DNA of 64,000 nucleotides. Source: an uncultured Lentisphaerota bacterium (GTDB taxonomy: Bacteria > Verrucomicrobiota > Kiritimatiellia > CAIQIC01). Below are positions 14,617-15,426 of this stretch, in pieces. The notes beneath the pieces are model-generated. The model ran no database searches. It was not told the DNA's origin and saw nothing but the letters and a program-made list of their open reading frames with translations. The position numbers and the translations under genes were made by a program. Every line of letters begins with the position of its first letter. Positions within the stretch are counted from its first letter, which is position 1. Location: the NCBI GenBank assembly GCA_903889245.1, contig CAISWQ010000102.1, positions 1 through 64,000 of the forward strand, written 5' to 3'.

Positions 14617-15426
14617 ATGAAAACGGCGGACAGCGCGCAGGTCGCCGAGTGGGTGCTCGCCGCCGACCATATCGCCGTCCTGACGGGCGCGGGCATCTCG
14701 ACGGCATCCGGTATTCCCGATTTCCGCTCCGCCGCCGGCCTTTACGCGACGCGCGCCAGCGAAAACATTTTCGACATCGAACTTTTTCGGCGCGACCCGG
14801 CGCCGTTCTACACCTTTGCGGCCTGGTTCTATCCGACCCTCCTGAATGCCCGCCCGAACGCCGCGCACACGGTGCTGGCCGAGTGGGAGCGCGGGGGCAA
14901 GAAAATCGAGATTGCGACGCAGAACGTGGACGATCTGCACCAGCGCGCCGGCTCGCAGCGCGTTTACCCCGTGCATGGCTCATGGCTGACGAGCCGCTGC
15001 CTGAAATGTTCCAGGGATTGGAAAACGATGGAGGCTGTTTTTCCAGGGATTGGAAAAGCTCACGGAAATTTTTCCGGGCCTCGGAAAAATCCCGGCGAAA
15101 TTTTCCAAGCCTTGGAAAAAGAAATACCACGCTGTGATTGCGGCGGCGTGTTGAAGCCGGACATCACGTTCTTTGGCGAGGATCTGCCGGGGACGGCGTG
15201 GGCCTGCGCGCTGGAGGCGATGCAGTCTGCGCCACTGATCCTCGTGCTGGGCACCAGCCTGACGGTCTTCCCCGCCGCCACCCTGCCCGACTATCGCCAT
15301 ATGAACGCACGGCTCGTCATCATCAACCGCGACCCAACACCACTGGATGATGCGGCCCACGCCGTCCTGCGCGGCGAATTAGCGGAAGTGATGGCGCAAC
15401 TTCATGCGCGCGCATTTCTGGCGTGA
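14617..15426 (+). CDS. Sir2-family NAD-dependent deacylase carrying a repeat-encoded insert
   Basis: ADHIAVLTGAGISTASGIPDFRS; TQNVDDLHQRAGS; VHGSW; CLKC...CDCGGVLKPDITFFGEDLP; the insert lies between the two Cys pairs. Confidence 0.93.
   Translation: MKTADSAQVAEWVLAADHIAVLTGAGISTASGIPDFRSAAGLYATRASENIFDIELFRRDPAPFYTFAAWFYPTLLNARPNAAHTVLAEWERGGKKIEIATQNVDDLHQRAGSQRVYPVHGSWLTSRCLKCSRDWKTMEAVFPGIGKAHGNFSGPRKNPGEIFQALEKEIPRCDCGGVLKPDITFFGEDLPGTAWACALEAMQSAPLILVLGTSLTVFPAATLPDYRHMNARLVIINRDPTPLDDAAHAVLRGELAEVMAQLHARAFLA
15008..15117. repeat. Family A array, 4 units, inside the sirtuin CDS, centres 15016/15048/15079/15110
   Basis: CCAGGGATTGG x2, CCGGGCCTCGG, CCAAGCCTTGG. Confidence 0.95.

What the first reader, a model, noticed from the sequence alone, without database searches (positions are those of the whole stretch)
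15008..15117. Four-unit palindrome array inserted in frame inside the sirtuin zinc-knuckle
The Sir2 ORF reads CLKC-SRDWKTMEAVFPGIGKAHGNFSGPRKNPGEIFQALEKEIPR-CDCGG. The 41 residues between the second and third Zn-ligand cysteines are almost wholly encoded by a complete 4-unit array (spacings 32, 31, 31). Sirtuins usually have a much shorter loop there. The reading frame is kept and the catalytic motifs and all four Cys survive, so the repeat appears to have become protein sequence. The closest precedent I know is the Rickettsia palindromic elements found within coding genes.
Basis: partly seen in the sequence, partly recalled or inferred. Interest (0 to 1): 0.82.

Follow-up and report, generated by a model that had tools for sequence, protein, structure and literature searches.

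The report
Phased palindromes built into a sirtuin
In this Kiritimatiellia-type bacterium a sirtuin gene carries, in frame in its zinc loop, four copies of a 19-base DNA palindrome that occurs over 1,600 times in the genome at steps of about three DNA turns; most copies inside genes seem to be DNA sites that evolved in place, probably for an unidentified DNA-binding protein, rather than jumping inserts.

Summary
Window 15007-15119 holds four TTTTCCAnnnnnTGGAAAA palindromes (spacing 32/31/31) inside an intact Sir2 ORF. The Cys131-Cys173 loop is 41 aa, against 20 aa in 102 of 113 measurable homologues. A nine-protein clade has the longer loop (30-31, 41, 47, 66 aa), so it arose on that clade's stem and later grew; a net in-frame gain is real (+63 nt for this gene). 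The reading as an RPE-like mobile insert is not supported for the family. The palindrome occurs 1,638 times in the genome (reversed control 0). Arrays keep 31/32-bp spacing with unrelated spacers, and off-peak spacings also fall on the 10.5-bp helical repeat. In nine of eleven host genes compared, units are collinear with orthologues, mostly including ones with no or degenerate units, so they arose by substitution. Codons in units are 88% identical between species against 56% elsewhere. Intergenic positions are conserved (6/6 and 13/15), strand is irrelevant, and Y1 transposase genes do not track copy number. Best reading: a chromosome-wide set of helically phased dimer-binding sites. In this sirtuin, and one CHASE2-like gene, arrays enlarged by about 63 nt in a tolerant loop. 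The binding protein is unknown.

The parts
14617..15426 (+). Sir2 family NAD-dependent deacylase gene, 269 aa, with enlarged zinc-module loop
   Evidence: ORF; PF02146 160.6 bits; T. maritima Sir2 and other solved sirtuins by phmmer
15007..15025 (.). Palindrome unit 1, TGTTCCAGGGATTGGAAAA; starts at the Cys131 codon, whose G is its only arm mismatch; read as C-SRDWK
   Evidence: collinear with the ordinary sirtuin loop
15039..15057 (.). Palindrome unit 2, TTTTCCAGGGATTGGAAAA; read as FPGIGK
15070..15088 (.). Palindrome unit 3, TTTTCCGGGCCTCGGAAAA (symmetric double change); read as FSGPRK; absent from the 31-aa-loop relatives
15101..15119 (.). Palindrome unit 4, TTTTCCAAGCCTTGGAAAA; read as FQALEK just before EIPRC
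15010..15132 (+). Codons 132-172, the 41-aa loop between Zn ligands Cys131 and Cys173
   Evidence: AlphaFold block pLDDT 54-68 for residues 141-170 against mostly >90 in the core
152..202 (.). Intergenic two-unit array of the same family
10626..10675 (.). Intergenic two-unit array of the same family
19579..19659 (.). Intergenic three-unit array of the same family
25124..25173 (.). Intergenic two-unit array of the same family
33821..33901 (.). Intergenic three-unit array of the same family
45369..45481 (.). Intergenic array of the same family (three detected units)
54735..54816 (.). Intergenic array of the same family (two detected units, 63 bp apart)

Best explanation
The palindrome TTTTCCAA-NNN-TTGGAAAA is most likely a DNA-level recognition site for a dimeric DNA-binding protein. 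It is set out genome-wide in short arrays whose members lie on the same face of the helix (31/32 bp, three turns). SHOWN: copy number, helical phasing, conserved positions between genes, birth and decay by substitution inside genes, constraint at synonymous sites, no strand preference, and an in-frame array in the sirtuin loop with about 63 nt net gain. INFERRED: that a protein binds it, that the protein is a chromosome-organising or very global factor, and that the sirtuin array is a working site. In the sirtuin, units were accommodated in the variable loop between the two zinc Cys pairs. Growth came in steps that keep both helical phase and reading frame: 20 to about 31 aa on the clade stem, then to 41 aa. 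The consensus unit has no stop codon in any frame (FSKxWK, FPxLGK, FQxLEK), so it is read through as a flexible surface loop. The peptide is probably a by-product tolerated by the enzyme.
For: 1,638 sites (<=1 mismatch) in 5.26 Mb, reversed control 0. In 1.264 Mb sampled, adjacent spacing is 31 (230) or 32 (145). Off-peak spacings lie on a 10.5-bp period with R=0.85, n=29; still R=0.72, n=9, p about 0.01 after removing multiples of the main step. Cores and spacers of neighbouring units are no more alike than random: 34 same cores against 29.9+-4.8; spacer identity 3.74 against 3.91+-0.19 of 12. Of 222 arrays 164 are intergenic, 32 at gene edges and 26 interior, against 17/30/175 by chance. Intragenic units are collinear with orthologues in cinA, aroB, prmC, a TagA/STAS gene, a phosphatase-like gene and four more genes. 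In the phosphatase-like gene the pair is shared with genomes of two other families (G007, G014), while G005, G006 and G010 have equal length without it. Codon identity at conserved residues is 86/98 in units against 2563/4561 elsewhere, p=3e-11, with no choice of orthologues. Rare codons are used in units (CCA 0.44 against 0.05; GGA 0.40 against 0.04). Orthologous gaps own/G001: 6 of 6 own arrays matched, 13 of 15 empty gaps empty, Fisher p=0.0005. Gene-orientation classes are equally occupied; G.T and A.C variants are balanced, 41 against 37. Sirtuin ladder and tree; parallel +21 aa (63 nt) in the other four-unit coding array, CHASE2-like gene C87:24185.
Against: No binding protein was identified and no binding data exist. 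DNA of the other eight long-loop sirtuins could not be fetched, so their units are inferred from protein. The sirtuin gained length, which a pure substitution model does not give; how about 30-nt steps are added is unexplained. The orthologous-gap table is small (21 gaps). Conservation of codons in units could partly reflect a mutational or conversion bias toward the motif rather than selection. The gene caller is home-made.
Confidence: 0.62

Rival explanations
1. RPE-like mobile element: the array inserted into the sirtuin as a selfish palindromic element and was kept because the frame stayed open.
For: Net in-frame gain against the 20-aa loop; copies inside other genes; motif open in all frames; some signal-peptide junctions do show length gain.
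Against: Most coding copies compared are collinear. No conserved element longer than the 19-bp unit. Positions between genes conserved. Y1 transposase genes do not track copy number: own genome 2 weak hits, a motif-free genome (G045) 21; the two own Y1 genes are not flanked by arrays.
Confidence: 0.12
2. RNA-level element: hairpins acting as terminators or mRNA stabilisers.
For: Palindromes can fold as hairpins; many lie just downstream of genes.
Against: Divergent gaps are as often occupied as convergent ones; no excess of G.U over A.C variants on the transcribed strand; no extended flanking stem; helical phasing has no obvious use in RNA; no Rfam family.
Confidence: 0.07
3. Uptake-sequence-like molecular drive: motif copies accumulate by biased DNA uptake and recombination, not because a resident protein needs them.
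For: Substitution-born copies inside genes and over a thousand copies resemble Haemophilus/Neisseria uptake sequences (PMC2346458).
Against: Perfect palindrome and helically phased arrays are not known for uptake sequences (own knowledge); interior copies strongly depleted (26 of 222 arrays), whereas about 65% of H. influenzae copies are in ORFs (PMC2346458).
Confidence: 0.08
4. REP/BIME-like repeats that spread long ago and are now kept or decaying in place.
For: Short palindromes in small intergenic clusters, patchy over the class.
Against: Strict 31/32-bp phase with random spacers, gains by substitution in genes, lineage-specific centres with fixed arms, no RAYT link.
Confidence: 0.11

Closest known systems
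Rickettsia palindromic elements (RPE; Ogata et al. 2000, as reviewed in PMC10969869)
   Same: Palindromic repeat family read in frame inside unrelated genes, apparently tolerated by the protein
   Different: RPEs are ~150-bp elements that integrate; here the unit is 19 bp, arrays are helically phased, and most coding copies compared arose without an indel
REP/BIME repeats with RAYT (Y1) transposases
   Same: Short palindromes, clustered, mainly intergenic, hundreds to thousands per genome
   Different: Fixed 31/32-bp step, no conserved element beyond the unit, no Y1 link, embedded collinearly in genes
DNA uptake sequences of Pasteurellaceae and Neisseria (PMC2346458)
   Same: Over a thousand dispersed copies that also lie within genes in open frames
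   Different: Not phased palindrome arrays; here interior copies are strongly depleted
Chromosome-organising palindromes (parS TGTTTCAC-GTGAAACA, Noc NBS TATTTCCC-GGGAAATA; PMC7383237)
   Same: Dispersed palindromes bound by a dimer; NBS has similar TTTCC/GGAAA arms
   Different: 8-3-8 architecture instead of 8-8, far more copies, arrays at three helical turns; no binder known here

Membership tests
Sir2 family (sirtuin) | Rossmann NAD-binding core with GAGIS and QN(V/I)D motifs, catalytic His | tested here: met
   PF02146 160.6 bits over profile 1-180; motifs invariant in alignment; model mean pLDDT 89, pTM 0.87
Sir2 family (sirtuin) | Four-Cys zinc module | tested here: met
   Cys128, 131, 173, 175 conserved
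Rickettsia palindromic elements | In-frame presence inside protein-coding genes | tested here: met
   26 interior arrays of 222 in 1.264 Mb
Rickettsia palindromic elements | Arises by integration of a whole element (clean empty site in orthologues) | tested here: not met
   9 of 11 host genes collinear; only the sirtuin and the CHASE2-like gene gained about 63 nt
Rickettsia palindromic elements | ~100-150 bp conserved element with terminal palindrome | tested here: not met
   Conservation is confined to 19 bp, spacers random
REP/RAYT | Y1 (RAYT) transposase gene flanked by the palindromes | tested here: not met
   Two weak Y1 hits in the own genome, no flanking arrays; no correlation over 26 genomes
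Helically phased protein-binding site array | Spacing locked to 10.5 bp irrespective of spacer sequence | tested here: met
Helically phased protein-binding site array | A cognate DNA-binding protein | not testable with these tools
   Needs pull-down, ChIP or DAP-seq
DNA uptake sequence | Preferential uptake of DNA carrying the motif | not testable with these tools
   Needs a transformable strain

The most novel reading that the evidence does not exclude
Kiritimatiellia chromosomes carry a genome-wide lattice of palindromic sites, held on one face of the helix at three-turn steps, for an undescribed architectural or global DNA-binding protein; the lattice is strong enough to impose peptide sequence (FSKxWK, FPxLGK, FQxLEK) on enzymes such as this sirtuin, AroB, CinA and PrmC.
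Probability: 0.45. Interest if true: 0.85.

Novelty: new variant of a known kind. Interest (0 to 1): 0.7.

Why it matters
If right, a DNA-binding lattice shapes protein sequence across a bacterial class, so that part of an enzyme is dictated by what the DNA must look like rather than by what the protein needs. It points to an unidentified, probably global, DNA-binding protein, and gives a test case for how regulatory or architectural DNA is accommodated inside genes. It also warns that RPE-like 'insertions' can be substitution-born sites.

Tried and rejected
Mobile insertion as the general rule: rejected by collinearity. Tandem duplication of units as the source of arrays: neighbouring cores and spacers no more alike than random, although units 1 and 2 of this array share a core. 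RAYT-driven REPs: no correlation. RNA hairpin or terminator: no orientation or wobble asymmetry, no extended stem, no Rfam match. Literature: no paper found that holds the motif or describes such repeats in Kiritimatiellae. One DNA search was too long and was repeated shorter.

Full report
Observation. The sequence at 15007-15119 holds four 19-bp palindromes TTTTCCAnnnnnTGGAAAA, spaced 32, 31 and 31. Over the window 28 such sites (<=2 mismatches) are found against 0.11 expected. They lie within an intact Sir2 ORF, 14617-15426, whose nearest solved relatives are ordinary sirtuins such as that of Thermotoga. Unit 1 starts exactly at the codon of the second zinc ligand, Cys131 (TGT); the one arm mismatch of that unit is the G which the Cys codon needs. 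Unit 3 carries a symmetric double change that keeps the palindrome.

The loop in homologues. Of 113 homologues whose Cys-Cys loop could be measured, 102 have 20 residues. Nine proteins form a clade (support 100/98 with the loop removed) with loops of 30-31 (P0004-P0007, P0009), 41 (the window and P0003), 47 (P0002) and 66 aa (P0008). In P0004-P0006 the loop still reads as three units (SKxWK/R, (F)PxLGK/Q, FQALEK/N); P0001 and P0003 have a fourth (FSxPxK) between. Unit 1 is collinear with the ordinary loop (C-x5-T kept). So the loop grew on the stem of the clade by about 33 nt and later by 30 nt in the 41-aa forms, always in frame. The order of these steps among P0001-P0006 rests on an unresolved node. 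The predicted structure has a confident core and a low-confidence loop (residues 141-170, block means 54-68), as expected for a tolerated surface loop.

The family behind it. The same palindrome occurs 1,638 times (<=1 mismatch) in the 5.26-Mb assembly, 0 times for the reversed control. It is abundant in the three other genomes of the genus (305-900), near background in the two of the sister genus (12-14), and patchy over the class (52 of 117 genomes with an exact match). The arms are kept while the centre differs by lineage (GSC here, TGA in G007). In 1.264 Mb sampled, arrays hold 1-7 units at 31 or 32 bp. The spacers are GC-rich but otherwise random, and neighbouring units resemble each other no more than random ones. 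Off-peak spacings fall on multiples of 10.5 bp (R=0.85; R=0.72 after removing multiples of the main step). In G001 adjacent units lie at 32 bp in 133 of 144 cases. Spacing is therefore held by helical phase, not by sequence.

Where the arrays lie. With a home-made gene caller (963 genes, 90% coding), 164 of 222 arrays are intergenic, 32 overlap gene edges and 26 are interior, against 17/30/175 by chance. Gaps between genes of any orientation are used alike, and wobble variants show no strand bias. Between the own genome and G001, 6 of 6 own arrays in orthologous gaps have a counterpart and 13 of 15 empty gaps are empty (p=0.0005).

Inside genes. Orthologues of eleven host genes were compared. 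In nine, including cinA, aroB, prmC, a TagA/STAS gene, a YidD-like gene and a phosphatase-like gene, the units are collinear with orthologues, and in all but the YidD-like gene the comparison includes orthologues with no or degenerate units (small indels occur nearby in a few, e.g. 7-8 codons in aroB of G001, G006 and G007 and 4 codons in gene C56:87831 of G004 and G005). In the phosphatase-like gene the pair is present in G001, G002, G007 and G014, the last two of other families, and absent at equal length from G005, G006 and G010. Units often sit where the protein already had a compatible motif (FFxxLE in AroB, PxL in CinA). Only the two four-unit interior arrays, this sirtuin and a CHASE2-like gene (C87:24185), show a large net gain, 21 codons (63 nt, the length of two units) in each. 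Codons at conserved residues are identical in 86/98 cases in units against 2563/4561 outside (p=3e-11, own against G001, all orthologous pairs); units use codons that are rare in this GC-rich genome. These facts point to a constraint on the DNA itself.

Interpretation. Mobile insertion does not explain collinear gain, conserved positions and helical phase. RNA hairpins do not explain strand neutrality. Y1 transposases do not track the motif. The best account is a genome-wide set of dimer-binding sites, phased at three helical turns, for an unidentified protein. The sirtuin is one of the few coding places where an array also grew in length, in a loop that allowed it. This last step (how 30-33-nt steps are added) is inferred, not shown.

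The locus. In G001, G004 and G005 the slot between the small gene 14412-14609 and the gene starting near 15473 holds no sirtuin. In G001 the slot holds an intergenic two-unit array at 31 bp. Whether G001 lost the sirtuin around its array or the gene arrived in an array-bearing slot cannot be told; about 38% of gaps of 60 nt or more bear arrays, so coincidence is possible.

Limits.

Noticed in passing
window 3232-3285 (+): nhaA-I RNA (RF03057), 46.3 bits, above gathering score; probably the leader of the downstream gene.
   Followed up: no
L260 18598-18647 (G001:C5): The slot that holds the sirtuin here is empty of it in G001 and holds an intergenic two-unit palindrome array instead.
   Followed up: partly
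own genome C65:60651, C38:87858, C38:120562, C123:40512: Several sulfatase-like proteins with Tat-type N-termini carry a two-unit array at the signal peptide/mature junction; in one compared case G001 has the array where the own gene is shorter.
   Followed up: partly
own genome C87:24185-24298: A CHASE2-like gene (753 aa) is the only other sampled gene with a four-unit interior array; it too has 21 codons more than its orthologue in G003.
   Followed up: yes
L032 2259-2579: In a genome of another family (G019) arrays have centre CGCCA and a 22-bp step besides 31, again close to whole helical turns.
   Followed up: no
window 10605-14696 (-): A 1363-aa antisense ORF over the nadB region looks like an artefact of GC-rich sequence; palindrome peptides (FQGLEK, FPSLGK) appear in such spurious ORFs and could mislead annotation.
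   Followed up: no
protein P0045: A close sirtuin (87% over its first half) loses the sirtuin sequence right after unit 1 (SKDWK), as if the frame or contig was broken in the array.
   Followed up: no
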